The notes under the pieces were generated by a model. That model did not search any database, had not been told where the DNA came from, and saw only the letters and a program-made list of their open reading frames with translations. The translations under genes and the position numbers were made by a program. A stretch of DNA of 64,000 nt from Methanoculleus sediminis (GTDB taxonomy: Archaea > Halobacteriota > Methanomicrobia > Methanomicrobiales > Methanoculleaceae), in NCBI RefSeq assembly GCF_001017125.1, contig NZ_JXOJ01000002.1:285033-349032 (forward strand), read 5' to 3'. Of this stretch, positions 2,037-16,332 are shown one piece after another (position 1 is the first letter of the stretch; the number at the start of each line of letters is the position of its first letter).

Positions 2037-3317
2037 CTACCGGGCCTCGCCCGACGTGTTCTGAGGCGCGATGATCAGTTTCACCTTGACGATCCGCCGG
2101 CCCCGCATCTGCATCACCACCAGCATGATGTTGCTCTCCTCGATCTTGACCACCTCGCCGCGGCGGGGGATGTGCCCCAGCCGGTCGATGACGAGGCCGC
2201 CGATGCTCTCGTAGGTATCGGTCAGCGGGAGAGCGAGGTCCAGGTCATCGTTGAGGTGCTCCACCCAGGCCCGCGCATCGACCAGATAGACACCGTCCTC
2301 GATCTGCTGCACCTCGGGCTCCTCCTCGTCGAACTCGTCCATGATCTCGCCGACCAGTTCCTCGAGCATGTCTTCGACGGTCACGATCCCGGCAAACGAG
2401 CCGTACTCGTCGAGGACGACCGCCATATGCTGCTTCTTCACCTGAAGCTCCTTTAAGAGCTCGTCGATCTTCTTGCTCTCGGGAACAAAGTAAGGCTCGT
2501 ACATCAGGTTCCCGATCGTCGCGCTCGTCTGCTGCCGGAAGACTGCCGAGAAGACGTCTTTCACGTTCAGGAGCCCGACGACGTTGTCGATCTGTTCGTG
2601 GTAGACCGGTATCCGGGAGAAACCCGTCTCGTTGAAGATGGAGAGGGCGTTCTCGAGCGTGGACACGTCCTCGACCATGACGACGTCCACCCGCGGCGTC
2701 ATCACCTCGCGGACCGTCGTGTCTCCAAAGCGCAGTACCGAGTAGAGCATGTCCCGCTCCTCCTCCTCGATGGTGCCCTCCTCCTCGCCGACGTCGATCC
2801 ACTCCTTGATCTCCTCCTCGGTGACGACCGGCTCGGTCACACCGGGCCTGAAGGCGAACTGCCGCTTGATGCGGTCCGCGACCCAGAGCACCGGGTAGAG
2901 CACTCTCGAGAGGTAAAGGATCGGCCGGGCGACGCGGAGCGCGAGTGCCTCGGTGTGCCGGGAGGCGTACATCTTCGGCCCGATCTCCCCAAAGACCAGC
3001 ATCAGGATGACCGTGACGCCGGTCGCTATCCCGATACCGACGTCGCCGTAGGCGGCGATGGCGATCGCGGTCGCGAGCGATGCCGCGGCTATGTTGACGA
3101 TGTTGTTCCCGATCAGGATGGTGATCAGGAGGGCGTCGGTCGATCGTTTCAGCGTATCGAGTGCTTTCGCTCCTTTCCTACCCTGATTTAAGAGGGCGCG
3201 GACTTTCGCCCGGGTTATCGATATGAGGGCGACTTCCGAACTCGAGAAGAAGCCCGAAAGGAGCAGACAAACAATGAATAAAATGATCTCTATGGTTAGA
3301 AGGTCTACGACTACCAT
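2037..3317 (-). CDS. CNNM/CorC-HlyC-type membrane transporter-like protein with paired CBS domains
   Basis: A 426-residue membrane protein. The N-terminal DUF21/CNNM region (about 1-180) has four hydrophobic segments and the motif SGFFSSSEVALIS. A CBS pair follows (about 200-330; VMTPRVDVVMVEDVSTLENAL and HMAVVLDEYGSFAGIVTVEDMLEELVG quoted in part), then a CorC_HlyC domain (about 345-420). Family members are linked to Mg2+/Co2+ export or tolerance; the haemolysin label is historical. A GGAG sits 3-7 nt before the chosen ATG and a TATA element about 85 nt upstream. It probably leads an operon with purN; no functional link between the two is evident. Confidence 0.9.
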   Translation of the reverse strand: MVVVDLLTIEIILFIVCLLLSGFFSSSEVALISITRAKVRALLNQGRKGAKALDTLKRSTDALLITILIGNNIVNIAAASLATAIAIAAYGDVGIGIATGVTVILMLVFGEIGPKMYASRHTEALALRVARPILYLSRVLYPVLWVADRIKRQFAFRPGVTEPVVTEEEIKEWIDVGEEEGTIEEEERDMLYSVLRFGDTTVREVMTPRVDVVMVEDVSTLENALSIFNETGFSRIPVYHEQIDNVVGLLNVKDVFSAVFRQQTSATIGNLMYEPYFVPESKKIDELLKELQVKKQHMAVVLDEYGSFAGIVTVEDMLEELVGEIMDEFDEEEPEVQQIEDGVYLVDARAWVEHLNDDLDLALPLTDTYESIGGLVIDRLGHIPRRGEVVKIEESNIMLVVMQMRGRRIVKVKLIIAPQNTSGEAR

Positions 3318-3412
3318 TTACTCCACGCCGCATCAAGCGGCAGCATCCGGTATTGATTGATTCCCGGCATTTTATGAATTATGTCGCGCGCAGATGTTAT
3401 AAAACCAGCGCT

Positions 3413-4237
3413 TCACGGGAATACCTCTCGTAGCGCCTCCGATTCACGCGAGAGAAGCACGACCTTCTCCTCGGACGAGAGCGCCCCGGGAAAGACCATG
3501 TCCTCGAGTTCCAGCGTGAGGTATCCGCCGTAGCCCCGGTCGGCAAGTTCCGCAAGCACCCGCAATGCCTCCGGATCATCATGGATGGGGTGGTGGGGCC
3601 GCCCGTTCCCGCCGAGCGCGCTGACGTGGACGTTGACCGTTCGTTCGATGCAGAGGTCGATGAACCGGATTACCTCGTCGCAGGACGTCATCATGGCGTG
3701 TCCCATATCCAGCGTGAACCAGAGCCAGGGTTCCCGCTCGAGCACCTCGGCGGCATCTTCCGCCGTCGAGAGGAGGGCGTTGACCCGGGGCTCCAAGTTC
3801 TCGATCGCCACCTTCACCCGTGTTCCCTCGGCGACTTCGCGGAGCCGGGCGATATAGTCCTCGAACCGCCGGTAGTCGTAGGCGCTCGGGTGGCGTTTCG
3901 CCGTCCGCTTCCCCGGGTGGACGGTGACCACGGCGGCACCCATCCGCTCCGCCATCCGGACGGCCTCGACGGCGTAGTCGACCGAGATCTCGGCGACCCG
4001 TGGATTGATGGAGCAGGGGTTCAGGTCCAGCGACGGGGCGTGGACGGTGATCGGCGAGAGTTCCGGGTGGCCCGCGATGCACCGGCCAAGTTCGCCTTCA
4101 GGACGGTCGCGAAGCCAGAAGTGCGGCGTCTCGACCCAGAACTCAAGTGAATCAAGGCCGGATTCGGCGACGTAGTCGAAGATATGGTCGCAGGGATACT
4201 CGTGGAAGAACATGGTCGAGACGGCGAAACGACCCAT
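3413..4237 (-). CDS. Sugar phosphate isomerase/epimerase-family TIM barrel
   Basis: A 274-residue AP-endonuclease-2-like (xylose isomerase-like) barrel. Supporting phrases are FAVSTMFFHEYP at the first strand, SPITVHAPSLDLN, VVTVHPGKRT, VKVAIENLEPR, LWFTLDMGHA with a metal-binding D/H, VNVHVSALGG and GYLTLELED. The clustered His/Glu/Asp residues at strand ends are typical metal ligands, but the substrate cannot be read from sequence. The start MGRFAVST is chosen because the family fold begins there; a longer frame upstream would cross the divergent xseA promoter. Confidence 0.88.
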   Translation of the reverse strand: MGRFAVSTMFFHEYPCDHIFDYVAESGLDSLEFWVETPHFWLRDRPEGELGRCIAGHPELSPITVHAPSLDLNPCSINPRVAEISVDYAVEAVRMAERMGAAVVTVHPGKRTAKRHPSAYDYRRFEDYIARLREVAEGTRVKVAIENLEPRVNALLSTAEDAAEVLEREPWLWFTLDMGHAMMTSCDEVIRFIDLCIERTVNVHVSALGGNGRPHHPIHDDPEALRVLAELADRGYGGYLTLELEDMVFPGALSSEEKVVLLSRESEALREVFP

Positions 4238-4244
4238 AACACTA

Positions 4245-4262
4245 CTTGATATAAACCATCGG
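4245..4262 (+). promoter_or_regulatory. Divergent promoter region of xseA and the sugar isomerase gene
   Basis: Only about 40 bp separate the two start codons. A GATATAAAC box on the plus strand, read as GTTTATATC on the minus strand, lies about 20-25 nt before the xseA ATG, implying a leaderless xseA transcript. The same AT-rich core may serve the minus strand. Confidence 0.5.
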
Positions 4263-4276
4263 TCTAATAGATTGTG

Positions 4277-5524
4277 ATGATGCTCGGCGGTCATTCCACG
4301 GGCCCGGAGCGGTTCGGCACCCCGATCTTCGGGGTCTCGGAGGTCTCGGGGCTCATCTGCGACCTCCTCGACGACGCACGCCTGCGCCAGATCTGGGTGC
4401 GGGGGGAGGTGACCAACTACAAGAACCACGGCTCCGGCCACCGCTACTTCTCGCTCTCCGAGCAAAACGGAAGGGATTCCGCGGTGATCAACTGCGTTAT
4501 GTGGCGCACCTCCGCTTCAACGCTCGCGTTCGCACCCAAAGACGGCATGGACGTCCTCGCCTGGGGATCCGTGGAGGTCTACGAGCCTCACGGCAGGTAC
4601 CAGCTGATCGTCCGGGAGATGCTCCCGGCGGGCCTCGGCGAACGCCACCTCATGGTCGAGCGCTGGAAACAGGAACTCGACGCCGAAGGGCTCTTCGATC
4701 CCGGGCGGAAACGGCCTCTGCCCCTTTTCCCACGACGTATCGGCGTGGTCACCTCATCGACCGGCGCGGCGGTGAAGGATATCCTCTCGGTCATCTCCCG
4801 GCGCTACCCGGCGGAAGTCGTCCTCTCCCCGACGGCAGTCCAGGGGGAGGGGGCGCACGTCGAGATCGCGGAGGCGATCCGGCGGATCGACGGGCTTGTG
4901 GACGTGATCATCGTCGGGCGCGGCGGGGGGAGTTTCGAGGATCTCTTCCCCTTCAACCACCCGGACGTCGTGCGGGCCGTCGCGGCGTGCAGAACGCCGG
5001 TGATCAGCGCCGTCGGGCACGAGGTGGATACCGCCCTCTGCGACTTCGCCGCGGACCTCCGGGCGCCGACCCCGTCCGCGGCGGCGGAACGTGCGGTGCC
5101 GGAACGCCGGGAGGTGCTCCGGGAACTTGCCGGGTGCGAGGAGAGGATGCACCTGCTCGTCCACAGCCGCCTTGCCGCATCACAGAGCGAGGTCGAGGAT
5201 CTCCGGGAGCGCATGCGCCCCGGACGGCTTGCGCGCCGCATCAACGAACGGATGCAGCGCCTCGCTGAACACGACGACCTGCTCCGCCGGGCGGCGGTCA
5301 CCCGGATGCAGCGGGAACGCTCCGCCCTCACGGAGGTTCGCGCCAATCTCGAAGGAAAGAACCCGCTCGCGATCCTGGAGCGGGGATACTGCATCGTCGA
5401 GGCGGGCGGCAGGGTCGCGAGGAGCGCCGCGAGCCTCGCACCGGGCGAGCGCGTGACGATCAGGATGGTGGACGGCCGGGCGAAAGCCGTCGTGGAGGAG
5501 ACAACGTATGACGAAGACCTTTGA
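4277..5524 (+). CDS. xseA: Exodeoxyribonuclease VII large subunit
   Basis: Catalytic subunit of the bacterial-type single-strand exonuclease ExoVII. It starts with an OB-fold (LICDLLDDARLRQIWVRGEVTNYK in part) followed by the nuclease region with FPRRIGVVTSSTGAAVKDIL, DVIIVGRGGGSFEDLFPFN and PVISAVGHEVDT containing conserved Arg/Gly/Asp/His residues, then a coiled-coil arm and C-terminal NPLAILERGYCIV. About 415 residues, near the usual 400-450. GTG and two ATG codons are adjacent at 4274-4282, so the exact start is uncertain. It overlaps xseB by 17 bp. Confidence 0.96.
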   Translation: MMLGGHSTGPERFGTPIFGVSEVSGLICDLLDDARLRQIWVRGEVTNYKNHGSGHRYFSLSEQNGRDSAVINCVMWRTSASTLAFAPKDGMDVLAWGSVEVYEPHGRYQLIVREMLPAGLGERHLMVERWKQELDAEGLFDPGRKRPLPLFPRRIGVVTSSTGAAVKDILSVISRRYPAEVVLSPTAVQGEGAHVEIAEAIRRIDGLVDVIIVGRGGGSFEDLFPFNHPDVVRAVAACRTPVISAVGHEVDTALCDFAADLRAPTPSAAAERAVPERREVLRELAGCEERMHLLVHSRLAASQSEVEDLRERMRPGRLARRINERMQRLAEHDDLLRRAAVTRMQRERSALTEVRANLEGKNPLAILERGYCIVEAGGRVARSAASLAPGERVTIRMVDGRAKAVVEETTYDEDL

Positions 5525-5693
5525 AGAGATGCTGGAAGAACTGCGGGAAATTGTCCGGAAACTCGAAGACGGCGATACGAGCCTTGAGGAGAGCATCGCC
5601 ATCTACGAACGGGGTGCGCTCCTCGTCAAACAGTGCGAGGACCTCCTCGGCACGGCCGAGATGAAACTTACCGAGCTTGGCCGCGACCGGTGA
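5508..5693 (+). CDS. xseB: Exodeoxyribonuclease VII small subunit
   Basis: A 61-residue helical protein that packs on the ExoVII large-subunit arm. TFEEMLEELREIVRKLEDGD followed by SLEESIAIYERGALLVKQC is diagnostic of XseB. It starts inside the end of xseA (17-bp overlap), so the pair is translationally coupled. Its 3' end overlaps by 26 bp the end of the convergent histidine kinase gene. Confidence 0.95.
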   Translation: MTKTFEEMLEELREIVRKLEDGDTSLEESIAIYERGALLVKQCEDLLGTAEMKLTELGRDR

Positions 5694-7623
5694 AGCGATA
5701 GAACCCCGGCGGGACGTCGATCTCGAATCGCACACCCTTCCCGGGCTCGCCGGTCTCCCGTATGGAGAGATCGGTGATGCCGAGGATCTCCCTGGTAAGA
5801 AAGAGCCCGAACCCGGTCTTCCGCCCGAACCCACGCTCGAAGAGGTTCTCTTTTGCTGCATGGGGAATGCCGATGCCGTCGTCTTCGTAGACAAGGCTGA
5901 TCCCCCGGCCGGACTCTTCGGGATAGATGCGTATCCGGGTAACCCGTTCGCCGTGCCGGAGCGAGTTGTCGATGAGGTTTTCAAAGACCCGGACGATGAG
6001 CGGGTCGGCGTACACCTCCAGATCGCGCGTCCGTACCTCGACGGCAACCGGTCCCGGGTCAAGCCCCGCCGCCGCCTCGCGGACGATACGCCGGACATCC
6101 TGCCAGGCGGGAGCGGCCACGCCGACATCCCGGTATTCCGCGGTGAAGGCCATGTAGCGCCGGATGTCCCGGACGGCTTCTTCCTCCTTCCGACAGTACT
6201 CCAGCAGTTCCGGGTCGCTCACCTGCTCCCGGTAGAGGTCGAGGTAGCCGGAGAGGACGTTGAGCCGGTTTAAGATGTCGTGCCGGGTCACGTCGGAGAG
6301 GAGGTTGAGTTTCCGGTTCGCGAGGAGGAGCGCCTCCCCCGCCATCCGCGCATCGGTGATATCCCGCCCCACCGACTGGTACTCGACGGCGGAGCCTCCT
6401 TCGTCGAAGGCCGCCGTGTTTGTCCACTGCTGCCACCGGACCCTGCCGTCCGGCATGATCACCCGGTGCTCGACCGCCGATACCGGGTGGCCGGGGGTGA
6501 GGGACGCGAGGCTCTCCTGGATCCGGGCCTGGTCGTCGGGCGGGACGGTGAGGGCGTACCGCCGCCCGATGAGGTCGCTGCACGGGATGCCGAGGTAACG
6601 GCAATAGGCGTCGTTCGCAAAGGTGATGGTGCCGTCGGGGAGCCTGCGGCAGATCAACTCGGTCTGGCTCTCGACGACCATCCTGCACCGCTCCTCGCTC
6701 CGCCGGAGGGCAACTTCGGCCTCGCGCCGGGCCGTAATGTCCCGTATGTAGACGGAGACGCCCGCACGGGTGGGGACCGCACGCACCTCGAAGGCATGCT
6801 CCCGCCCGTGGAGGTCAAACCTGCATTCGCTCACGCCGGGCCGGCCGGTCTCTGCGATCTTTCGGAAAAACCCGATAACATCATCGTTCTGGAGTTCCGG
6901 GAACAGATGGTAGATGCTCTGTCCGACCGCTTCCTCCACCGGGCGGCCCGAGAGACGGGCGGCCGCCCGGTTCCAGGAGATGACGCGGCCGTCCCGGTCC
7001 AGGGCGAGAAATGCGTCGCTGACGTTCTCGGTCAGTTCCCGGTACCGGTCTTCGCTCTCCCGGAGGTCTTTCTCGACTCGCTTCTCTCCCGATATGTCGT
7101 GGAACACCCAGAGGTACTCGGTTGCACGGCCGCCGGAGCCGTAAGTTGCGGAAACGGCCGCGGTCGCCGGAACGGTGCCGCCGTCGGCGCGGACGAGCAG
7201 GAACTCCTGCGCCGGCAGATCCTCGCCCCGGCCGAGCGCTGCAACAGCCGACCGGAAAGCCGGAACGCTTCCCGGGTGGAGATGTACGCCGAGAGGCGAC
7301 CCCTGCAGTCGGTCGGCAGCGATGCCGAGCAGGAGGGCCGCCGCCCGGTTCGCCTCCAGGACGATGCCGTCCGCGCCCGTGCAGAGGCAACCCGCCGGGA
7401 GGTCGAGAAATCGGTCGCGGTACCGCCGGTATGCGGCGTCGATGCTCCGGATATCGGCGATCAGCGCGTCGACCTGATCGTAGATCTCGGCGAGATCGGG
7501 TTTGAGCAGGAGCAGGTTCCCCACGGGAGCCGCATCTTCGCCGGCCCTGAGCGGGCGGAGGCGGCGGTCGAGATCCTCCAGGTGTTCGAGGAGGTCTTCG
7601 AGAGCCGGGGTGAGCGGTTGCAT
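5668..7623 (-). CDS. Multi-PAS sensor histidine kinase (cytoplasmic)
   Basis: About 651 residues, no membrane segment. After an N-terminal helical region (about 1-80) come PAS1 (about 85-195), PAS2 (about 205-315, starting YRELTENVSDAFLALD) and PAS3 (about 325-440, ending VGRDITDARM). The phosphoacceptor helix has the archaeal-type H-box SDVTRHDILNRLNVLSGY. The ATPase domain has N-box NLIDNSLRHGE, G1 DDGIGIP and G2 KTGFGLFLT. The start MQPLTPALEDLLEHL is preferred because upstream sequence of the open frame is low-complexity and unrelated to kinases. No response regulator is adjacent, so it is an orphan kinase; the signal is unknown. Confidence 0.9.
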   Translation of the reverse strand: MQPLTPALEDLLEHLEDLDRRLRPLRAGEDAAPVGNLLLLKPDLAEIYDQVDALIADIRSIDAAYRRYRDRFLDLPAGCLCTGADGIVLEANRAAALLLGIAADRLQGSPLGVHLHPGSVPAFRSAVAALGRGEDLPAQEFLLVRADGGTVPATAAVSATYGSGGRATEYLWVFHDISGEKRVEKDLRESEDRYRELTENVSDAFLALDRDGRVISWNRAAARLSGRPVEEAVGQSIYHLFPELQNDDVIGFFRKIAETGRPGVSECRFDLHGREHAFEVRAVPTRAGVSVYIRDITARREAEVALRRSEERCRMVVESQTELICRRLPDGTITFANDAYCRYLGIPCSDLIGRRYALTVPPDDQARIQESLASLTPGHPVSAVEHRVIMPDGRVRWQQWTNTAAFDEGGSAVEYQSVGRDITDARMAGEALLLANRKLNLLSDVTRHDILNRLNVLSGYLDLYREQVSDPELLEYCRKEEEAVRDIRRYMAFTAEYRDVGVAAPAWQDVRRIVREAAAGLDPGPVAVEVRTRDLEVYADPLIVRVFENLIDNSLRHGERVTRIRIYPEESGRGISLVYEDDGIGIPHAAKENLFERGFGRKTGFGLFLTREILGITDLSIRETGEPGKGVRFEIDVPPGFYRFTGRGQAR

Positions 7624-7728
7624 ACCTGACCAGTTCCCCACACCCTGAATGCATAAACCTATCCCCGGCAGCTCACGGACGGGCACGCGGGTTCGGGAAC
7701 CGGCCGTGATCGCGGAACTCCTTTCAAA

Positions 7729-7950
7729 GTGTATATCGCACAGAACGGCGCACCATGCATCGTGGTAGACGAGAAGGTGTGGGCGGTAATGACGGTCTTT
7801 GCTGTGGGCGTCGTCGTGATCCTGGATCTCCTGGGCGGTCTCCCGACGGGAGTGGTCCTGATCGTCGGGCTCTTCGCGGCGGTTCTGCTCCTCGGAATCG
7901 GCATACTGGTGCTCGGCGAGATCCGGGACGGGATGCGGGACGCCCGGTGA
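7729..7950 (+). CDS. Small two-helix membrane protein, unrecognised
   Basis: Up to 73 codons encoding two strongly hydrophobic helices (VWAVMTVFAVGVVVIL and GVVLIVGLFAAVLLLGIGIL) followed by a charged tail EIRDGMRDAR. The most natural start may be the GTG at 7762 (reading MVDEKVWAV) rather than the ATG at 7729, because the first 11 residues are not membrane-like. A TATATCG element lies just at the 5' end. No family recognised. The hydrophobicity and clean charged ends argue for a real gene, but homologues were not checked. Confidence 0.5.
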   Translation: MYIAQNGAPCIVVDEKVWAVMTVFAVGVVVILDLLGGLPTGVVLIVGLFAAVLLLGIGILVLGEIRDGMRDAR

Positions 7951-7970
7951 GGGAGGGCGCTCAAGAACAT

Positions 7971-8047
7971 CGCACCTGATGGTGCTCAAACTCCCGGCTC
8001 GAAGACCTCCGGTCTTTTCGTGCTCCGGCCCTTCGGCCCATCGCACC
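7971..8047. repeat. Cluster of short palindromes between convergent genes (repeat family A)
   Basis: Contains GCACC-TGAT-GGTGC at 7972-7985 followed by the phrase CTCAAACTCC, then AAGACC-TCC-GGTCTT at 8002-8016 and a GGCC/GGCC hairpin near 8027-8040. The first unit recurs at 21737-21760 as GCACC-TTT-GGTGC plus CTCAAACTCC. It lies between two convergent genes, so it could also act in transcript 3'-end formation. Confidence 0.55.
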
Positions 8048-8488
8048 TTACGGACAGTCGTTCTCCGGCACCTCAACCTCGAGCTCGACGACCAGTTCCT
8101 CCCCCCGCCGGAGCGCCTCGATGAACTCCCGGGGGAGGGTCGCCGCCACCCGGTCGGAGCGGATGCCCACCGTCCGGTCGGAGACGAAATCGCTCCGCCG
8201 CCAGACGAGATCGGCGGGGTGATCCAGGGTGAACGCCGCGCTGCCCCGCGACGTCACCTCGACGGTCTCGCCCCCCGCGGTAAGCCGTGTCGTCAGCACC
8301 GCCCGATCGTTGCGGAGCAGCGCTTTGAGGGCGGAATCGAGGTCGGCGGCGCCCTTGTCGGCGGCGACGCCGACGATGCAGTCGCCGGTCTCGGTCAGCA
8401 TCTCGTCCCTCGTCACCTCAAACGTCGTCGGATGGGTCCCGCTGACCAGCGGGTGCCCCCGCGCCCGCACGATATCCCTCGCCTTCAT
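8048..8488 (-). CDS. DUF371-family protein
   Basis: A 146-residue cytosolic protein of an archaeal family without known function. Recognisable phrases are VRARGHPLVSGTHPTTFEVTRD at the N-terminus, CIVGVAADKGAADLD, LTAGGETVEVTSRGS, and DRTVGIRSDRVAATLPREFIEALRRG at the end. A conserved cysteine sits in GDCIVGV. No catalytic motif I can name. It is divergent from the HVO_0476-type zinc-finger gene with 32 bp between the start codons, so the two may share regulation. Confidence 0.8.
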   Translation of the reverse strand: MKARDIVRARGHPLVSGTHPTTFEVTRDEMLTETGDCIVGVAADKGAADLDSALKALLRNDRAVLTTRLTAGGETVEVTSRGSAAFTLDHPADLVWRRSDFVSDRTVGIRSDRVAATLPREFIEALRRGEELVVELEVEVPENDCP

Positions 8489-8512
8489 GCTTATTAGGAG
8501 AGGGATGCTATT

Positions 8513-8529
8513 GCTAATGAATGATTAGC
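8513..8529. promoter_or_regulatory. Inverted repeat embracing the start codon of the zinc-finger gene
   Basis: GCTAAT (8513-8518) and ATTAGC (8524-8529) are perfect 6-bp complements with the ATG of the downstream gene in the loop. It lies in the 32-bp divergent intergenic region and could be an operator or an RNA hairpin at the initiation site. Role not established. Confidence 0.4.
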
Positions 8530-9111
8530 ATCGTCTGCCCCGTCTGTAAAGAGGAGTGCGAACACCAGGTTCTCCGGGAAGCCGCCGATCTGGTGGTGCA
8601 GTGCTGCGAGTGCGGCCAGGTCCACCGGGTGCCGAAGCCCCCCGAGCCCGAGATCCTCACCATCAAGGCCATCGTGAGCCAGGAGACCGAATCGATGGTC
8701 TGCAGTGTCGAGATGCTCGAGGAAGAGGTCGTCTCCGTCGGCGACCGGATCGTCGCGGAGTGCGGAGACGAAGTCTTCGGGGTCGAGGTCACCGGCATCG
8801 AGGCGGGACCAAAGAGGGTTCGCCGGGCGGCGGCCGACGAGGTGACGACCCTCTGGACACGGGGGATTGAGCAGGTCGTGGTGAAGGCGTCGATTCATAC
8901 CGGGCGCACGACCCTCCCTCTCTACCAGACCGCCGACGGCGAGGACGAGTTCGTCGTCGGGGAGACCTACACCTTCGGCGGGCGACGAATCCGAATCTCG
9001 CACATCAAACTCCGCGACGGCCCGGTCATACGCAAAGAGGGCTGGAAGACGGTAGCCCGCAGGGTGAAGCGGATCTACGGGTATCTCGAGGGACGCTACC
9101 AGGGGCGCTGA
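8521..9111 (+). CDS. HVO_0476-family zinc-finger protein
   Basis: A 196-residue protein with an N-terminal zinc ribbon: CPVC near residue 6-9 and CCECGQVHRVPKP near 29-33, a typical four-Cys site. The remainder is beta-rich (VGDRIVAECGDEVFGVEVTGIE, TLPLYQTADGEDEFVVGETYTF in part) and ends with a basic helix ARRVKRIYGYLEGRYQ. This matches the archaeal family named after haloarchaeal HVO_0476, which is uncharacterised and probably nucleic-acid related. It ends 3 bp before the convergent thioredoxin-like gene. Confidence 0.85.
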   Translation: MISIVCPVCKEECEHQVLREAADLVVQCCECGQVHRVPKPPEPEILTIKAIVSQETESMVCSVEMLEEEVVSVGDRIVAECGDEVFGVEVTGIEAGPKRVRRAAADEVTTLWTRGIEQVVVKASIHTGRTTLPLYQTADGEDEFVVGETYTFGGRRIRISHIKLRDGPVIRKEGWKTVARRVKRIYGYLEGRYQGR

Positions 9112-9114
9112 CCC

Positions 9115-9393
9115 TCACCGGGGCAGGGGCTCGGGGAGGTGGCGCCGGATTGCAGCCTCGAGGTCTTCACGGTGGACGAGCCCTTCCATCCGCTCCCTGA
9201 TCTCGTCGCCGTCGAGGACAAGGGTCGTCGGCGTCACCCGGAGGTTATATTTCTGGATGTAATCCGGGTTCTTCACGGCATCGATCTCTTCCACCTCGAT
9301 CCCGAGATCCGTCTCTGCCTCGCGGAGGATCGGGGTCTGCTCCTTGCACCCCATGCATCCTTCCTGATAGAAACTGATCACCTTTACCGCCAT
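9115..9393 (-). CDS. Thioredoxin/glutaredoxin-like protein
   Basis: A 92-residue thioredoxin-fold protein with a CMGC active site (C13, C16) after FYQEG, the cis-proline segment VTPTTLVLDGDEI, and a C-terminal helix. Length and the absence of an N-terminal extension resemble the small archaeal thioredoxins that reduce protein disulfides. The substrate is unknown. A run of A on the plus strand just upstream (9416-9424) is AT-rich and may hold its promoter. Confidence 0.88.
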   Translation of the reverse strand: MAVKVISFYQEGCMGCKEQTPILREAETDLGIEVEEIDAVKNPDYIQKYNLRVTPTTLVLDGDEIRERMEGLVHREDLEAAIRRHLPEPLPR

Positions 9394-9437
9394 ATACGGC
9401 AGGTCGCGGGGAGACTATAAAAAAGTGTGGGGGGCCG

Positions 9438-10136
9438 TCACCCCGTTATGACGCCGAGCGTGACCCGGGCGCTGCCGTAGCGGTGCGCGATGGTCATCGA
9501 GTCGGGATTCTTGGCGGTGACCTTGCCGAAGCGCAGCGCAGGGCTCTCGTTGCTCTCGTTGCCGAGGGAGATATCCGGCGTCGTCGTCAGCCCGAGCGGC
9601 ACGAATTCGCCCACCTCCGTCTCGGTGAAGTTGAGACCGATGCCGTTTGCATCCTCTTCGCTCAGGTTCATGGCAAGGTCGTTCGTTCCGTAGGAGAAAC
9701 CGATTGTCTTCGTCTCACCGGGCCGCATCCCGACGAGCCCCACGGAGATGGCGTTGGTCTCGAAACCGAGCAGACCGAATCCCGAGAAGCCGCTGATCTC
9801 CGGGTATAAGACAGGGATAACGGCAATATTCTCGCCCGAGACCTGTCCGCCGACAGGCATCTCCAGACGCTGGGTCAGGAGGACGACGTTCCCCTTCTTG
9901 TATTCGCTCTCAAGGAGGCTCTGGTCGGTCGTGATGAGGGGCCGTCCGTCCTCGGCAAGAACCGTGTAATCGATAACCGCCGTGTTTCCTACCTGGGCGG
10001 CCGCCTTCTTCTCGAACATCGGGGCCAGGTAGGTGCCGACCATGGCAACCGCAACCAGAACGGCAATTCCCACGTAGGCCCATTTCATCCAGGGGGCATT
10101 GTCGTCCTTCGAGGTCTTCTGCTGTGTCTTTTTCAT
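9438..10136 (-). CDS. Membrane-anchored FKBP-like (peptidyl-prolyl isomerase-type) protein
   Basis: 232 residues. A Lys/Gln-rich N-terminus is followed by one transmembrane helix (about 17-42, WAYVGIAVLVAVAMVGTYL), placing the rest outside the cell. The phrases VGNTAVIDYTVLAEDGRPL and SVGLVGMRPGETKTIGFSY match the start and the GMxxGE turn of FKBP domains of the SlyD-like archaeal group, with a large insertion between them. FKBPs catalyse proline isomerisation and act as chaperones. Several aromatic FKBP active-site residues are not obvious, so enzymatic activity is uncertain. Confidence 0.75.
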   Translation of the reverse strand: MKKTQQKTSKDDNAPWMKWAYVGIAVLVAVAMVGTYLAPMFEKKAAAQVGNTAVIDYTVLAEDGRPLITTDQSLLESEYKKGNVVLLTQRLEMPVGGQVSGENIAVIPVLYPEISGFSGFGLLGFETNAISVGLVGMRPGETKTIGFSYGTNDLAMNLSEEDANGIGLNFTETEVGEFVPLGLTTTPDISLGNESNESPALRFGKVTAKNPDSMTIAHRYGSARVTLGVITG

Positions 10137-10198
10137 TACAAGTACAATTCGCCGTTTGGTGAAATAAAATGGTATTGTTATGAGAAGAAGAAGGGAGG

Positions 10199-10222
10199 TC
10201 GAAGATAAATTTATATTATTTC
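10199..10222 (+). promoter_or_regulatory. TATA-box promoter for hsp20
   Basis: An AT-rich AAATTTATATTATTT element lies about 75-85 nt upstream of the Hsp20 ATG, in the 157-bp divergent region shared with the FKBP-like gene. It would give a leader of about 50 nt. Confidence 0.6.
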
Positions 10223-10293
10223 AGCACTACCTTAAGGTTAGCCTCGGGCGACCCGCTTGTCCGGGGCGATCCGAGTATACAGGAGTGATTACG

Positions 10294-10764
10294 ATGGCAA
10301 GAATAGAACGAGGGCCGTACCGGACGATATGGCAGGACTTCGACGACCTTATGGCCGAGATGGAAAGCAGGTTCCAGTCCTTGCTCGGGGGGATCGGCTC
10401 ACGCGGAGAGGAAGTCCGGGGCCGGGTCGTCCCGGCGGTCCGCGACTTCCGCGTGGATGTCCGCGACCACGAAGACGAAGTGATCGTCGTTGCAGACCTT
10501 CCCGGCGTCGAAAAAGAGAACGTCGCCGTCCGGCTCATCGATCCCCAGCACCTGGAGATCGCCAGCAGGCGGACGGGAGAGACCGAGGAGGAGAGCCGGG
10601 ATTTCTTCATGCGGGAACGCATCTATGGGCTGATGAGCCGGACGGTGCTGCTTCCGGCGGAAGTGACCGAGGAGAGCGCCGCTGCAACGTTTAAGAACGG
10701 TGTTCTCGAGGTCCGGCTGAAGAAGGCGCCGACCGAGACCGGGACCACGATCCCCATCGAATAA
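10294..10764 (+). CDS. hsp20: Hsp20/alpha-crystallin small heat shock protein
   Basis: 156 residues. N-terminal arm (about 1-45), alpha-crystallin domain (about 48-145; FRVDVRDHEDEVIVVADLPG, LEIASRR, ATFKNGVLEVRLKK) and a C-terminal IPIE, the I-x-I anchor used in oligomer assembly. It holds unfolding proteins under stress. The ATG at 10294 is chosen over an in-frame ATG at 10180 because AGGAGTG lies 7 nt upstream and the TATA box is between the two. A second Hsp20 with the same C-terminal IPIE is at 45370. Confidence 0.96.
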   Translation: MARIERGPYRTIWQDFDDLMAEMESRFQSLLGGIGSRGEEVRGRVVPAVRDFRVDVRDHEDEVIVVADLPGVEKENVAVRLIDPQHLEIASRRTGETEEESRDFFMRERIYGLMSRTVLLPAEVTEESAAATFKNGVLEVRLKKAPTETGTTIPIE

Positions 10765-10765
10765 C

Positions 10766-10778
10766 CTTATTTTTTCAT
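10766..10778 (+). terminator. T-run terminator after hsp20
   Basis: CCTTATTTTTTC immediately follows the stop codon; archaeal transcription terminates at such T-rich stretches. Confidence 0.5.
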
Positions 10779-10806
10779 GCCGATAGGTATTTCAACCGAA
10801 TAGTTC

Positions 10807-11622
10807 ATGTCGGGCCAGCGTGACACTATCATGATGGATAAAAAGAAGGTCAAGGATTACATGACCTACGACGTCGTCACCGTCGACGCACATGGAACGG
10901 TCCGGGACGTCATCGAAGCAATAAAAAATACGCATCACGACGGCTTCCCCGTCGTGGAGAACTCAAAAGAGGTAGTAGGTTACATCTCGGCGCGGGACCT
11001 TCTCTTTGCCCATCCGTCAACTCCGATAGAGCAGGTGATGTCCCGCCACCTCATCGTCGCCGACCCGGACATGAGCGTGAACGACGCCGCCCGCGTCATC
11101 TTCCGCTCCGGCATCCAGAAACTCCCGGTCGTCAACGACAAGAACGAGCTCATCGGGATCATGTCGAACGCCGACGTCATCAGGTCCCAGATCGAACACG
11201 TTTCGCCGGAGAAGGTCTTCAAATTCATCGAGACCCTCAAAAAACTCTACGGAGTCGAACCGGTCTTAAGAAGGGGTTCGGTCCCGATCAACGATCTCCT
11301 GCCCACCCAGTCGAAGATCTACGAGGACGAACTGGAGGGAAGGATGTACGAGATCAAGAAAGGGCTCGCCGAACCCCTGATCGTGGTCAGGCGGCCGGGC
11401 CGCTGGATCCTGGTCGACGGGCACCACCGCGCGATCGCGGCGAAACGGCTCGGGATCAAGAACCTCGACGCCTACATCATCGAGGTCAGGGAGAACATCG
11501 AGCTCGGGATGGAGCGGACGGCCCGGACGCTGAACCTCAAGACGCTCGACGACATCAAGGTGCTCGACTACGCCCGCCACCCCCTCGTCGCGCTGACGCA
11601 CCGGCTCGTGCGGCACGGGTGA
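10807..11622 (+). CDS. CBS-pair protein fused to a ParB-like nuclease domain
   Basis: 271 residues. Two CBS motifs (about 15-130: VKDYMTYDVVTVDAHGTV, GFPVVENSKEVVGYISARD; MSRHLIVADPDMSVNDA, KLPVVNDKNELIGIMSNAD) sense adenine nucleotides or related ligands. After a linker, a ParB/sulfiredoxin-type domain (about 155-235) carries LAEPLIVVRRPGRWILVDGHHRAIAAKRLG in part, with the DGHHR signature. The combination suggests a ligand-gated nucleotide- or DNA-dependent enzyme; function is inferred only. In-frame ATGs at 10831 and 10834 (MDKKKVKDYM) are plausible alternative starts. Confidence 0.9.
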   Translation: MSGQRDTIMMDKKKVKDYMTYDVVTVDAHGTVRDVIEAIKNTHHDGFPVVENSKEVVGYISARDLLFAHPSTPIEQVMSRHLIVADPDMSVNDAARVIFRSGIQKLPVVNDKNELIGIMSNADVIRSQIEHVSPEKVFKFIETLKKLYGVEPVLRRGSVPINDLLPTQSKIYEDELEGRMYEIKKGLAEPLIVVRRPGRWILVDGHHRAIAAKRLGIKNLDAYIIEVRENIELGMERTARTLNLKTLDDIKVLDYARHPLVALTHRLVRHG

Positions 11623-11627
11623 ACAGA

Positions 11628-11640
11628 CATCTTTTTTATT
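11628..11640 (+). terminator. T-run terminator
   Basis: CATCTTTTTTATTCC follows the CBS-ParB stop codon by a few bases. Confidence 0.5.
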
Positions 11641-11739
11641 CCATCGGCATTGCCGTGACCGTCCTATACGGATTTCACCCCGGTGTGCCGGTGACACCCG
11701 TCAAATTCGCATAAGGTCTACTTAACCTGCTTGAATCTA

Positions 11740-11755
11740 TCAGAAATTATATCTA
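11740..11755 (+). promoter_or_regulatory. TATA-box promoter upstream of the duplicated membrane protein
   Basis: AAATTATATCTAA-type box. Transcription would begin near 11770-11782, right at the left arm of the nested inverted repeat, leaving a leader of roughly 140 nt before the ATG at 11918. Confidence 0.5.
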
Positions 11756-11781
11756 ACATTAAATAGCATTTCGAACCATCA

Positions 11782-11853
11782 GAAACGGCCGCTCTTCATT
11801 CAGGGAGCCAACGGACCTCAAATGCCCTGAAGGCACCTCAAGAAGGCCGTTTC
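11782..11853 (+). promoter_or_regulatory. Nested inverted repeat in the 5' leader (candidate structured RNA element)
   Basis: Outer arms GAAACGGCC (11782-11790) and GGCCGTTTC (11845-11853) are perfect 9-bp complements. Inner arms TTCAGGG (11799-11805) and CCCTGAA (11825-11831) are perfect 7-bp complements. The co-linear nesting predicts a two-stem RNA with internal loops of 8 and 13 nt and a 19-nt apical loop. No known riboswitch class is recognised. Confidence 0.55.
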
Positions 11854-11917
11854 GCAGCCGGCATGCCTATTCGCGGACGAGAACGGGCGTGAGACCAGGC
11901 TCGAACGGGGCATCGAG

Positions 11918-13918
11918 ATGAGAGAGATACAAGAAACCATAACCCGCCGGACAAAAGACCGTCTCGGGGAACAGCCGCCGCACCCGGCGGCGATCGCCGG
12001 ACTCTACCTGCTCTGCATATCGCTCATCTGGTTCCTTCCGGGCTTTCTCGCGCCGGAACTCTTCGGCGGGGGCAACGCTTACCCGTTCATCATCTTCGAA
12101 TACGGCGGCGTATACCTGCTCGCGGCCGTCCTCTTCGGATGCTCCGCGGCACTTCTCTTCGCACTGGCGAGGCAGATGAGCGGGCCTGGCGTGCGGGCAT
12201 TCGCCCTGGCCGTCGCGCTCCTCCTGCTCTACCTGGTCCCCACCTATCTCGGGGGATCGATGCAGATGATACTGCCGTTTTACGTCCCCGGGTGGGATTA
12301 TTTCGGCCTATCGCCCGCAGTCGACGTCCTGATGAGCGCCGTCATCTCCTTCTCGGGCATCGGCCTCCTCGCTCTCGCGACGATCGTACCCATCCTCCTC
12401 ATCGACCGGTACGCCCCAATGAAGCGGCCGTATGCCGCCGCGGCAGTGCTCGGCACCCTCCTCTTCCCCTGCCTGGCGGCGGCGATCTTCAGGACCGATC
12501 CCGTTCCGTCCCTCATCCCCTGGCTCTCCCTCTCCCTCTCGACCCTCTCCGTCCTCTGCCTCGGGGTCGCCGGGGCGGCGGTGCTCTCCATCCCTCTGGT
12601 CGTCCGCCGTCTCCTGAAGGGGAGCGGCAACCCGCCGCAGCAGGCCCGGATCTTCGGGTTGCTTCTCCTCTGTCTCCTCCTCGTCTGGTTCGTCCCGGGG
12701 TATCTCGAGCCCGGATTTTTTCTTACGGGCTACGACTCCTCCAACCCCAGCTCCTGGCAGAAGAGGAGTTGGTTCACCCCCTACGGCCCGGGGGATCTCG
12801 AATGTCCGTTGTCCACCCTCCCCACGATCGAAGGCAACTATCTCATCGACATGAACGTCTTCCCGGCCGGCCCCCACTCAATCATCTCCCCCTGCACGAT
12901 GTACACCCACGAACACACAGAGGAACGGTACATCGTCGGCCAGCAATGGTACAGGGACGAATGGACGTTCCGAAGCGAGAAGAGGACATTATTCGAATCG
13001 CTGACGGGCATCGGGGAGGTATCGGAGACGACGCTCGATCTCGGCGACCACCTCCTTGCCGCCGGGTTCGAGCGCTCCGACGCGGAGCGGGAATACCCCG
13101 CCTGGCTCTTCATAAACGAGACCACGAGGGGCTACATCCTCACCTACGAGAGGCCGTTTGACGACGGCAGGAGCAACGACTTCTTCATCGTCTACTACGG
13201 GACATACAACACCATGGGCCCCGATCCGGACAGGTCTCTCAAAGCGCTGATCGCACAGCGGCTCTCCCCGTCGGCGATCCGGGCTCCCGGCGAGGGGCTC
13301 TACGAGGAAGAACGCCTGAGCCGGATGCCGGAGGCGGAACCGTTCCTCTACATCTCCGGGATGCTCCGGTATGCCGGCATCCTCCTCCTGACGCCCTTCC
13401 TCTTCGGGTGCTCCGCCGCGCTCCTCTTTGCGGGTGCGCTGACCGAACTGGAGACCCAAAAAAGACGATTCGCCATTGCGATTCCGCTCCTCGCCGCCGT
13501 CCTCCTGTACCTCTCTCTCATCTCCGCCTACCTGACCGGTTCGACCTGGATGCCGATCCCGCCGTTTTATCTCCCCACGAGCGAGCCTCTCGGCGTATCG
13601 ACGCTTCTCGAGGTCCTGCTGAACCTCATGATATTCCTGTCGGCCCTCACGTTCATCGGTCTCGGGGTGATCGCGCCGTACCTTCTCCTCAAGCGCTACC
13701 TCCCCCTGAAGCGGCCTTTCCGGGCTGTTCTCGTCTCGGGCACCCTCGTCTTCGGCATCCTCGTCTACCCGCTCATGATGATGCTTGCCGTCTGGGGCGG
13801 ATTACGTCCTGCCCCCTGGCTCTCCCCTCTTGTCTGGGTGGCCCTCGGGTTCTGCCTTGCCGCCGCGTGGGCGGTGGTGATCTACGCAGTCCAGGCAGCG
13901 GCGGGGCGGAAGGGGTGA
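11918..13918 (+). CDS. Internally duplicated 12-helix membrane protein with a large external domain, unrecognised
   Basis: 666 residues. Six predicted membrane helices (about 25-225) are followed by a related six-helix unit (about 235-665). Both halves share LFGCSAALLFA (residues 72-82 and about 494-504), WFxPGxL, FYxP and xKRPxxA at matching places. In the second half a soluble region of about 210 residues (about 255-475), with Trp/Tyr-rich segments and two Cys, is inserted after the first helix. No transporter or enzyme family is recognised. It precedes another polytopic protein by 75 bp on the same strand. The ATG has GGGGCATCGAG in front of it. Confidence 0.82.
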   Translation: MREIQETITRRTKDRLGEQPPHPAAIAGLYLLCISLIWFLPGFLAPELFGGGNAYPFIIFEYGGVYLLAAVLFGCSAALLFALARQMSGPGVRAFALAVALLLLYLVPTYLGGSMQMILPFYVPGWDYFGLSPAVDVLMSAVISFSGIGLLALATIVPILLIDRYAPMKRPYAAAAVLGTLLFPCLAAAIFRTDPVPSLIPWLSLSLSTLSVLCLGVAGAAVLSIPLVVRRLLKGSGNPPQQARIFGLLLLCLLLVWFVPGYLEPGFFLTGYDSSNPSSWQKRSWFTPYGPGDLECPLSTLPTIEGNYLIDMNVFPAGPHSIISPCTMYTHEHTEERYIVGQQWYRDEWTFRSEKRTLFESLTGIGEVSETTLDLGDHLLAAGFERSDAEREYPAWLFINETTRGYILTYERPFDDGRSNDFFIVYYGTYNTMGPDPDRSLKALIAQRLSPSAIRAPGEGLYEEERLSRMPEAEPFLYISGMLRYAGILLLTPFLFGCSAALLFAGALTELETQKRRFAIAIPLLAAVLLYLSLISAYLTGSTWMPIPPFYLPTSEPLGVSTLLEVLLNLMIFLSALTFIGLGVIAPYLLLKRYLPLKRPFRAVLVSGTLVFGILVYPLMMMLAVWGGLRPAPWLSPLVWVALGFCLAAAWAVVIYAVQAAAGRKG

Positions 13919-13993: not shown

Positions 13994-14959
13994 ATGACGT
14001 CCAAATATTATACAACCCTGCAGAACCTCATACGCCTCCTCCCCTACTCGCTCTTCGCCGGCCTGGTCGGCGGCGGACTGCTGGCGCTCCCGGCCTGCGT
14101 CCATACATGGTGCTGGGGCGGGATCGCCTGCTACAACCACGGGCTCTTCGACGGCATCGGCACGTTCCAGGGCCTGGTGCTCGGCATCCTCGCTCTCCTC
14201 CTTACCGGGATGCTCCCGGTCGCCATGCGGCGGGAGGGCGGGATGGAGAGGAACTTTGCCGTCCTCGCAGGCGGGATCGCCGGGTTCACGGCATTTCTCG
14301 TCCTCGAGATTTATTCAATGGTAACAGCAGTCTCCGGGCACGGATACGCCGCAGGACCCTCCGACGTCCTCTCTCTGGCCCATGACACCCTCACGGATCT
14401 CCTCCTCCCCCTTCTCGCCATCGCCCTCGCTATGGCGGCCCTCGCCGCTCTCGGAGCCTTCGCCGTCTCGTTCATCCGGGAGAGAGCGGCCGGGCCGAAC
14501 GAGGGTGCCGCGGCATCGCGGCTCCTCCTCTGCTCCACGGCCGCCCTCATCCTCGTCGTCGTGGTTCTCCCCCCGCTCACCGCCCACGCGATGCTCGGTG
14601 CAGGGATGATCGACGTGAACCCCGGAACGGCGCTGATGACGGCCGCCGTCTCCGCCGAACGCACCGCGCCCGACACCATCGTCATCACCGTCGAGGAAGC
14701 GCCTCCCGCTTCCGCGCTCGACCACGATCTGCCGTTCTCGGTCTTCATGAACGGATTCGACGTCTCCGATGCTTCCGCGTGCGCCACGAGCGGTTTTGCC
14801 GCGACGGTCGACACACCCGGGGGGCTTGAGGCCGCCAGAGGATCGGAGGCCGCCTGGACGGGGGCCGGGGTCTCAAACAACGGCACCCCGGTGGACATCG
14901 TGGTGATGGGCCACGGGGCCGACGGCTCGGATATCATCGTCATGAGCCGCACAATTTAA
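13994..14959 (+). CDS. Polytopic membrane protein with a C-terminal external beta-rich tail, unrecognised
   Basis: 321 residues. Predicted helices lie at about 14-35, 55-75, 85-108, 128-158 and 175-200; a Cys pair is in CVHTWCWGGIACYN near residue 36-48. After the last helix a roughly 110-residue tail (PDTIVITVEEAPPAS, FSVFMNGFDVSDASAC, GAGVSNNGTPVDIVVMGHGADGSDIIV in parts) reads like the beta-strand-rich end of archaeal pilin-type proteins, which is only a resemblance. It follows the duplicated membrane protein on the same strand and may be functionally linked. Function unknown. Confidence 0.78.
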   Translation: MTSKYYTTLQNLIRLLPYSLFAGLVGGGLLALPACVHTWCWGGIACYNHGLFDGIGTFQGLVLGILALLLTGMLPVAMRREGGMERNFAVLAGGIAGFTAFLVLEIYSMVTAVSGHGYAAGPSDVLSLAHDTLTDLLLPLLAIALAMAALAALGAFAVSFIRERAAGPNEGAAASRLLLCSTAALILVVVVLPPLTAHAMLGAGMIDVNPGTALMTAAVSAERTAPDTIVITVEEAPPASALDHDLPFSVFMNGFDVSDASACATSGFAATVDTPGGLEAARGSEAAWTGAGVSNNGTPVDIVVMGHGADGSDIIVMSRTI

Positions 14960-15058: not shown

Positions 15059-16237
15059 CTACGACCCCTCGGTCCGGGTATCGAAATCCTCGTTCAGGAC
15101 ATGCTCTTTCACGACCGTCCCCTCCGGGATGATCACCTCCGGCCAGAGCCGGGTCCCGGAGTGGACGACCACGCCGCCTTTCAGCACCGCACGGGGCCCG
15201 ATGACCGTGTCGTGCTCGATGTTGCACCCGCTCCCGATGAGCGTATCGTTGTCGATGATGCTCCCGCTGACGGTGCTGTCTCTCCCGATCACCACCCGGT
15301 TGTAGATCGACGAGGAGAAGATCTTCGCGCTGTTCTTGATTATGCAACCCTCTCCGATGCTCGTATACGGCCCGATAATGACGTTCTCCTCGATGATCGT
15401 CCCGGCGCCGATCGAGACCGGCCCGATCACCCGGGAGTTCGCCGCAACCGAGACGCAGCTCCCTATCTGTGCCGGGCCGAGGATCCGGGCACCCTTGATG
15501 TAGAGGTCGCCGGAGATGTTCGTGAACCCGATATCCTGCAGTTTCCACCTCTCGGCTTCACGGAGCGACCTCGGGCTCCCCACATCCGACCAGTTGCCGC
15601 GGGCAAGCCAGGCTTTGAGGGGGTACCCCTGCTCCATCAGTTCGGGGAAGAGGTTGCGGGCGAAGTCGAACTTCTCGCCGGTCGGGATGTGGTCGAAGAT
15701 CTCCGGGTCGCAGACGTACATACCGGTGCTCGCGAGGTTCGAGAAGATCTCCCCCGGGCTCGGCTTCTCCTTGAACCGTTTGATCTGGTAATCCGCATCG
15801 ATCTCGGCGATCCCGTACTCGGTCGGGTCGTCGATGCTGATGAGCCCTATCGTGGTGATCGAGTCGTTTGCAAGGTGCTCGCGGTAGAACTCGAGCAGGT
15901 TCAGGCCCACCACGTGGTCGCCGCCCACGACCAGGAACGGCTGCTCTTCGAGGTATTTCTGGGCATTCTTGACGCTCCCCGCCGTCCCGAGCTTCGTCTT
16001 CTCGTGGACGTAGGTGACGTCGACCCCGAAGAGCGACCCGTCCCCGAGAGCCTCCTCGATGGACTCGCTCATGTAGCCGAGCGTGATCACCACGTCGGTG
16101 AACCCGAGGTTCGCGAGGTGTGAGACCAGGTGCTGGATCGAGGGTTTGTTGACGATTGGAATGCACGGTTTTGGACGCCCGAATGTGAGGGGGCGGAGCC
16201 GTGTGCCCTCCCCTCCGCACATTATGCACACCTTCAT
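15059..16237 (-). CDS. NDP-sugar pyrophosphorylase with left-handed beta-helix domain
   Basis: 392 residues. The N-terminal nucleotidyltransferase (about 1-240) shows MCGGEGTRLRPLTFGRPKPCIPI, PFLVVGGDHV and the sugar-binding FxEKPSPGE and NWSDVGSPRS segments. The C-terminal hexapeptide repeats (about 255-375; IGPYTSIGEGCIIKNS, TLIGSGCNIEHDTVIG) form a left-handed beta-helix. It activates a sugar 1-phosphate with NTP for glycan synthesis; mannose-1-phosphate guanylyltransferase or glucose-1-phosphate nucleotidyltransferase is likely, but the sugar is not determined. The start MKVCIMCGG is chosen because it opens the nucleotide-binding strand. Confidence 0.9.
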   Translation of the reverse strand: MKVCIMCGGEGTRLRPLTFGRPKPCIPIVNKPSIQHLVSHLANLGFTDVVITLGYMSESIEEALGDGSLFGVDVTYVHEKTKLGTAGSVKNAQKYLEEQPFLVVGGDHVVGLNLLEFYREHLANDSITTIGLISIDDPTEYGIAEIDADYQIKRFKEKPSPGEIFSNLASTGMYVCDPEIFDHIPTGEKFDFARNLFPELMEQGYPLKAWLARGNWSDVGSPRSLREAERWKLQDIGFTNISGDLYIKGARILGPAQIGSCVSVAANSRVIGPVSIGAGTIIEENVIIGPYTSIGEGCIIKNSAKIFSSSIYNRVVIGRDSTVSGSIIDNDTLIGSGCNIEHDTVIGPRAVLKGGVVVHSGTRLWPEVIIPEGTVVKEHVLNEDFDTRTEGS

Positions 16238-16332
16238 GTCACTCCATTGTATGCGTATCGATTTAACCCTTGGGGCAGCACGGGGCACCCGTTCCCAACC
16301 TTTATCCTCCGGTATGCAAAGAATCTACAGAA

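What the first reader, a model, noticed from the sequence alone, without database searches (positions are those of the whole stretch)
11918..13918. Membrane protein built by internal duplication with a 210-residue external insertion
Both halves repeat LFGCSAALLFA exactly at equivalent positions and share WFxPGxL, FYxP and xKRPxxA landmarks. One half carries a large soluble Trp/Tyr-rich domain. No family is recognised, so this may be an undescribed transporter or sensor class.
Basis: seen in the sequence. Interest (0 to 1): 0.62.

Follow-up and report, generated by a model that had tools for sequence, protein, structure and literature searches.

The report
Duplicated membrane protein with hypervariable face
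A methanogen gene encodes a previously undescribed double-unit membrane protein whose outside-facing domain carries a stretch that related species swap by recombination, and it sits in a gene neighbourhood linked to secreted toxin-like and protease-like proteins, so it may be a surface recognition molecule rather than an ordinary transporter.

Summary
The 666-aa protein at 11918-13918 (called A) is two tandem six-helix units (40% identity, E 6e-24; HH probability 99.9%). Both units have the same predicted orientation, N-in, and the second carries a ~210-residue extracellular domain between its first and second helices. No Pfam, NCBIfam, PHROG, PADLOC or PDB family covers it. The membrane unit was found only in three families of one methanogen order. 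The soluble domain is a wider family, usually a single-helix-anchored protein.

(1) A is one half of a two-gene module with its neighbour B (13994-14959), present or absent as a cassette between two convergent genes.
(2) Homologues of A, B and the soluble domain sit beside secreted caspase-like peptidase and PepSY-like genes. Close relatives of a polymorphic-toxin-like protein lie within 8 kb of A/B in 8 of 8 resolvable genomes.
(3) Residues ~262-370 of the extracellular domain form at least three allele classes shuffled between species (dS 0.4-0.8 inside, mostly 0.1-0.3 outside; triplet tests p 2e-7 to 7e-21).

I favour a surface recognition component of an inter-microbial conflict locus (0.4). 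Transport, export/processing and toxin immunity remain open. Structure prediction failed.

The parts
11918..13918 (+). Gene A, 666-aa duplicated 12-helix membrane protein
11987..12592 (+). Unit 1, helices 1-6 (residues 24-225), no soluble domain
12131..12163 (+). First copy of LFGCSAALLFA (residues 72-82)
12644..12700 (+). Helix 7 = first helix of unit 2 (residues 243-261)
12701..13336 (+). Extracellular domain (residues 262-473); homologous to stand-alone anchored proteins of other methanogens
12701..13027 (+). Hypervariable recombining segment of the extracellular domain (residues ~262-370)
13028..13303 (+). Conserved core of the extracellular domain (residues 371-462), motif DFFIVYYG
13388..13891 (+). 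Helices 8-12 of unit 2 (residues 491-658)
13400..13432 (+). Second copy of LFGCSAALLFA (residues 495-505)
13994..14959 (+). Gene B, 321 aa: five predicted helices and a C-terminal ~125-residue predicted extracellular domain; conserved partner of A
14174..14383 (+). Fast-evolving stretch of B (residues 61-130)
11649..11954 (.). Stretch upstream of and into the start of A, 88% identical to the 5' side of a truncated toxin-like gene in sister species; includes a ~13-codon, stop-containing probable toxin relic on the minus strand (11649-11687)
10807..11622 (+). Left flank: CBS-domain protein gene, the direct neighbour of the right flank in genomes without A-B
15059..16288 (-). Right flank: nucleotidyltransferase/hexapeptide gene

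Best explanation
A is a 12-helix protein of the cell membrane made of two six-helix units in the same orientation. It holds an extracellular domain on the outside and works with the neighbouring membrane protein B. The A-B pair belongs to a variable surface or conflict locus that elsewhere also encodes secreted caspase-like peptidases, PepSY-like proteins and large secreted polymorphic-toxin-like proteins. The outer tip of A's extracellular domain is the recognition surface: it binds a partner or foe (a secreted peptidase/PepSY protein, a toxin, a neighbouring cell, or a virus) and is diversified by exchange of alleles between species, while the membrane part and B transduce or gate the response. 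Shown: duplication, topology pattern, A-B linkage, allele exchange, gene neighbourhood. Inferred: binding, partner identity, and any gating or signalling.
For: Tandem duplication. The positive-inside pattern puts both units N-in and the domain outside. All 16 genomes with a membrane unit plus soluble domain carry B beside it, in two genera with unrelated flanks. A/B co-occurrence within the genus is 10/10 against 3/25 (Fisher p 1.6e-6, not corrected for phylogeny). Allele segment: dS 0.43-0.82 between classes against 0.04-0.33 in the flanks for closely related pairs, and near flank level within classes; eight triplet tests p 2e-7 to 7e-21. A and B have dN/dS about 0.3-1.0 against about 0.1 or less for the two flanking genes. 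Neighbourhood: PepSY1 next to B in eight loci outside A-B, with the caspase-like gene before it in those where the contig allows; A-PepSY1-B in G054; caspase-like + PepSY2 + a double A without the domain in G119; soluble-domain gene abutting PepSY2 in several genomes. Toxin-like gene within 8 kb of A/B in 8 of 8 resolvable genomes.
Against: No binding partner or activity is known. In the window's own genome the caspase-like/PepSY pair lies elsewhere (G000:C8:892787-894250) and the toxin-like gene is only a probable relic, so the neighbours are not needed for A-B to persist. PepSY1 presence does not correlate significantly with A (p 0.15). High dN/dS could partly be relaxed constraint. Gene-neighbourhood counts are not phylogenetically independent.
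Confidence: 0.4

Rival explanations
1. A-B is an ordinary small-molecule transporter or channel. The 6+6 parallel repeat is the transport path, and the exposed tip varies only because viruses or grazers use it as an attachment point.
For: A 6+6 repeat with N-in/C-in topology is typical of secondary transporters (general knowledge). The strongest variability is confined to the exposed domain.
Against: No transporter profile or solved structure matches. Singles in f4 keep only one unit yet keep B. dN/dS is high across the membrane part too.
Confidence: 0.22
2. A-B is the membrane export, anchoring or activation complex for the secreted caspase-like peptidase, PepSY protein and toxin-like protein of the same loci.
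For: Tight gene orders caspase-PepSY1-B and A-PepSY1-B, and B near the toxin-like gene in G049 and G054. Caspase-like peptidases are described as processing enzymes of polymorphic toxins (PMC3482391). YpeB/PepSY-type proteins are proposed peptidase inhibitors (PMC6393860).
Against: Full-length secreted proteins there begin with apparent signal peptides (by eye), so a dedicated exporter is not obviously needed. A-B persists without these genes nearby in several species.
Confidence: 0.2
3. A, or A with B, is the immunity protein against the toxin-like protein of the locus, with allele classes matched to toxin types.
For: Linkage with toxin-like genes. Polytopic membrane proteins serve as immunity proteins in some bacteriocin systems (general knowledge). 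Retention after toxin loss would be orphan immunity.
Against: G020 and G033 have the same toxin tail but different allele classes in A. A separate small ORF follows the toxin-like gene in the usual immunity position (L075:5145-5642). The toxin-like genes beside A are 5'-truncated.
Confidence: 0.1

Closest known systems
VARTIG modules of Thermococcales (PMC8416519)
   Same: Archaeal membrane-associated locus centred on a protein with a segment that is hypervariable through recombination between species; layout resembling polymorphic toxin loci; self/nonself recognition proposed.
   Different: VARTIG centres on a large secreted immunoglobulin-domain protein. A is a 12-helix membrane protein with an unrelated domain and a fixed partner B. 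The VARTIG authors searched other archaea by Ig-domain criteria, which would not find A.
Polymorphic toxin systems (PMC3482391)
   Same: A-B loci carry secreted TSP3/beta-helix proteins with a conserved pre-toxin-like region, at least two different C-terminal tails and degenerate extra copies.
   Different: A and B are not toxins and match no known family. The toxin-like genes next to A are truncated, or reduced to a probable relic in the window.
Caspase-like (clan CD / C13-like) peptidase plus PepSY-type regulator pairs
   Same: Homologues of B, of A's membrane unit and of A's soluble domain lie in tight gene order with such pairs or their members.
   Different: In the window's genome the pair is elsewhere. 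Peptidase assignment rests on a visible His...Cys pattern and a sub-threshold Pfam C13 score (E 0.037).
6+6 repeat secondary transporters (for example MFS)
   Same: Two six-helix units, same orientation, N-in and C-in.
   Different: No profile match; fold not determined.

Membership tests
VARTIG-like hypervariable recognition module | Exposed segment hypervariable by recombination between species | tested here: met
   dS and triplet tests
VARTIG-like hypervariable recognition module | Large secreted Ig-domain protein at the 5' end of the locus | tested here: not met
   A is a 12-helix protein with no Pfam Ig or other match
Polymorphic toxin system, toxin component | Secreted protein with exchangeable C-terminal toxin domain | tested here: not met
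   A ends in helices conserved across orthologues; a neighbouring gene in sister species, not A, has that layout
Polymorphic toxin system, immunity protein | Allele type tracks toxin type | tested here: not met
   G020 and G033 share a toxin tail but not the A allele class; only one such pair
Polymorphic toxin system, immunity protein | Neutralises the cognate toxin | not testable with these tools
   needs expression experiments
MFS or another known transporter family | Significant profile match | tested here: not met
   nothing above chance
MFS or another known transporter family | Transporter fold with pseudo-two-fold axis | tested here: inconclusive
   AlphaFold2 mean pLDDT 35, pTM 0.26 with four near-identical rows
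Mog1/PsbP/LpqN-like domain (soluble part) | Fold match | tested here: inconclusive
   Model pLDDT 54; no Foldseek hit below E 1e-3; LpqN 6e5d listed at E 0.35, TM-score 0.30-0.33, not significant

The most novel reading that the evidence does not exclude
A-B is the membrane receptor of a so far undescribed self/nonself recognition system in methanogens: a duplicated 12-helix protein displays a polymorphic tip that distinguishes kin, rivals or viruses and works with a secreted caspase-like peptidase, a PepSY regulator and polymorphic toxins.
Probability: 0.2. Interest if true: 0.8.

Novelty: new variant of a known kind. Interest (0 to 1): 0.52.

Why it matters
How archaea tell kin from rivals is largely unknown. 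This is an undescribed membrane-protein family with direct sequence evidence of allele exchange on its outer face, and the segment is mapped, so recognition can be tested by comparing natural alleles. It also ties three families without annotation (A's membrane unit, its soluble domain, B) to secreted peptidase, PepSY and toxin-like genes, which gives a functional lead for many 'hypothetical' methanogen proteins.

Tried and rejected
Pfam, NCBIfam, PHROG and PADLOC scans of the protein and of its halves or aligned members found nothing above chance. PDB profile searches gave only chance hits (mechanosensitive channel YnaI E 0.17). AlphaFold2 of the whole protein failed. The soluble domain alone gave pLDDT 54 and no significant PDB fold. 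Virus, phage and plasmid collections hold no relative, so there is no sign that it is a viral gene. Weak membrane-unit hits in G226, G157 and G190 looked unconvincing (G190 is MFS-like by eye) and were set aside; the 368-aa multi-helix protein in G159 (E about 0.003-0.008) was left open. The helices of the G197 tandem proteins are not significantly related to A's units (HH probability 10%). The idea that A's allele class matches the toxin type failed on G020/G033. The idea that A needs the PepSY1 pair in the same genome failed (p 0.15). Whether the domain was gained by unit 2 or lost by unit 1 is undecided: unit 1 of all doubles, including G119, is one clade (100/100), so the duplication predates the split between G119 and the window's genus; the f4 single proteins lie on the unit-2 side, but the root is uncertain.

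Full report
What is there. The ORF at 11918-13918 (+) encodes 666 residues with no match in Pfam or NCBIfam. Three named Methanoculleus or Methanomicrobiales records carry 83%-identical full-length orthologues, and the window lies in the same genus as them by the tree of units. Other genomes bear handles only, so family and genus codes (f1, g1 and so on) are used below.

Duplication. The units align at 40% identity, E 6e-24. Profile-profile comparison gives probability 99.9 and E 3e-32. With the soluble part removed, one alignment runs through all six helices at 20 standard deviations above shuffles that preserve helix and loop composition.

Topology. Hydropathy with charge counting gives six helices per unit. 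The short loops on one side carry 1-5 Lys/Arg each and those on the other side 0-1, so both units start inside and the 210-residue domain is outside. This is inference from sequence; the AlphaFold2 model of the whole protein was unusable.

Distribution. Full-length A occurs in 10 of 35 genomes of the genus, the window's included. A search of 393 genomes of the phylum found the membrane unit essentially only in three families of the order (one weak further hit in G133 was not followed). Family f4 has single-unit proteins that keep the soluble domain, and G119 has a double without it. In a tree of units, all unit 1 copies group at 100/100 and the f4 singles fall on the unit-2 side; long G119 branches make finer claims unsafe. 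The soluble domain is much wider: 200-280-residue anchored proteins occur across the order and in other families of the phylum, with a conserved YYG motif.

Module. B (13994-14959) lies 75 bases downstream of A. B is beside A in all 16 genomes that have the membrane unit plus the soluble domain, including f4, where no other gene of the window's neighbourhood was found (in G054 a PepSY-like gene lies between A and B). In ten genomes of the genus without A-B and with long enough contigs, the flanking CBS-protein and nucleotidyltransferase genes are direct neighbours, a few bases apart in five of them, so A-B is a presence/absence cassette. Three genomes keep B without a detectable A; in one of these (G027) the contig ends close by.

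Linked genes. Eight B homologues outside the A-B pairs follow a PepSY-like protein (DUF4901 and PepSY matches; PepSY just above its cut-off), and the caspase-like gene with a visible GHG...C pattern comes before it, in part at a contig end in G027. In G160 two such pairs precede B in one run. In G119 a caspase-like gene and a second PepSY type precede the double A. The stand-alone soluble-domain gene directly abuts the same PepSY type in several genomes of the genus. In the window's genome one caspase-like/PepSY1 pair exists about 595 kb away on the same contig.

Toxin-like gene. A secreted protein with TSP3 repeats, in the long forms also a NosD/beta-helix region and an Ig-like domain, followed by a pre-toxin-like region and differing C-terminal tails, lies within 8 kb of A or B in 8 of 8 genomes where contigs allow a decision, at three or more distinct loci. 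The name 'pre-toxin-like' and the nuclease-like look of the tails come from my own knowledge; Pfam supports only TSP3, NosD/beta-helix and Ig-like. Next to A these genes are 5'-truncated, starting at the equivalent of residue 839 of the full-length G024 protein. In the window the stretch 11650-11954 is 88% identical to the same junction in sister species and holds a short stop-containing piece resembling residues 837-849 of that protein, so the gene was probably deleted here.

Hypervariable segment. Between the window protein and G003, unit 1 is 92% and the C-terminal part of the domain 93% identical, but residues 269-355 only 45%. The more distant G001 is 79% identical there. At least three classes exist: {G000, G001}, {MH98A, chikugoensis, G020}, {G003, G033, G017}; G005 looks mosaic. 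Synonymous divergence is 0.43-0.82 between classes inside the segment but 0.04-0.33 in the flanks for the closely related pairs, and is near flank level inside the segment within a class. In eight triplets, informative sites inside and outside the segment support different parents (p 2e-7 to 7e-21). This points to exchange of old alleles rather than relaxed constraint alone. A (outside the segment) and B have dN/dS of about 0.2-1.0, mostly near 0.5, the flanking genes about 0.1 or less; B residues 61-130 are also elevated.

Interpretation. A recombining exposed segment on a cell-surface protein, in a cassette-like module linked to secreted peptidase, PepSY and toxin-like genes, is best read as a recognition component of a conflict locus. 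The nearest published idea is VARTIG in Thermococcales (PMC8416519), which has unrelated proteins. Immunity to the linked toxin is disfavoured because G020 and G033 share the toxin tail but not the allele class. A transporter whose exposed tip evades viruses, and an export or processing complex, are not excluded.

Limits. Genomes are related, so association p-values are nominal. No structure, expression or binding data exist. The peptidase call rests on a residue pattern and a sub-threshold score. Phase, gain or loss of the soluble domain in unit 1 is unresolved.

Noticed in passing
L068 (G197:C1:1688500-1700000), 2498-9684: Five tandem ~450-aa secreted proteins with the same soluble domain followed by several helices; expansion not explained.
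   Followed up: partly
L232 (G024:C1:48000-62000) 9711-13685 and L180 510-4838: Full-length 1324-1442-aa secreted toxin-like proteins with signal peptide, beta-helix or TSP3 repeats and a variable tail near caspase-PepSY-B.
   Followed up: partly
L168 (G024:C1:58000-74000) 4126-6671: The caspase-like gene appears split by a 565-aa transposase-like ORF: its first 50 residues match at G024:C1:62125 and the rest at 64116.
   Followed up: no
L023 (G026:C133): A second, truncated copy of A (532 aa) with its own B; its hypervariable segment is a further allele.
   Followed up: partly
window 14174-14383: Residues 61-130 of B are also a hot spot of divergence (dS 0.4-0.5, dN 0.25-0.40 against most orthologues).
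   Followed up: partly
L229:4246-4845, L230:4387-4986, L231:3931-4530, L234:4549-5148: Short 199-aa extra copies of the pre-toxin-like region, probably degenerate toxin cassettes.
   Followed up: partly
L163 (G159:C1:1171000-1179000) 3323-4720: A 465-aa secreted protein that contains the soluble domain twice.
   Followed up: no
L063 (G159) 1849-2955: A 368-aa multi-helix protein with a weak match to A's membrane unit and a possible internal repeat of its own.
   Followed up: no
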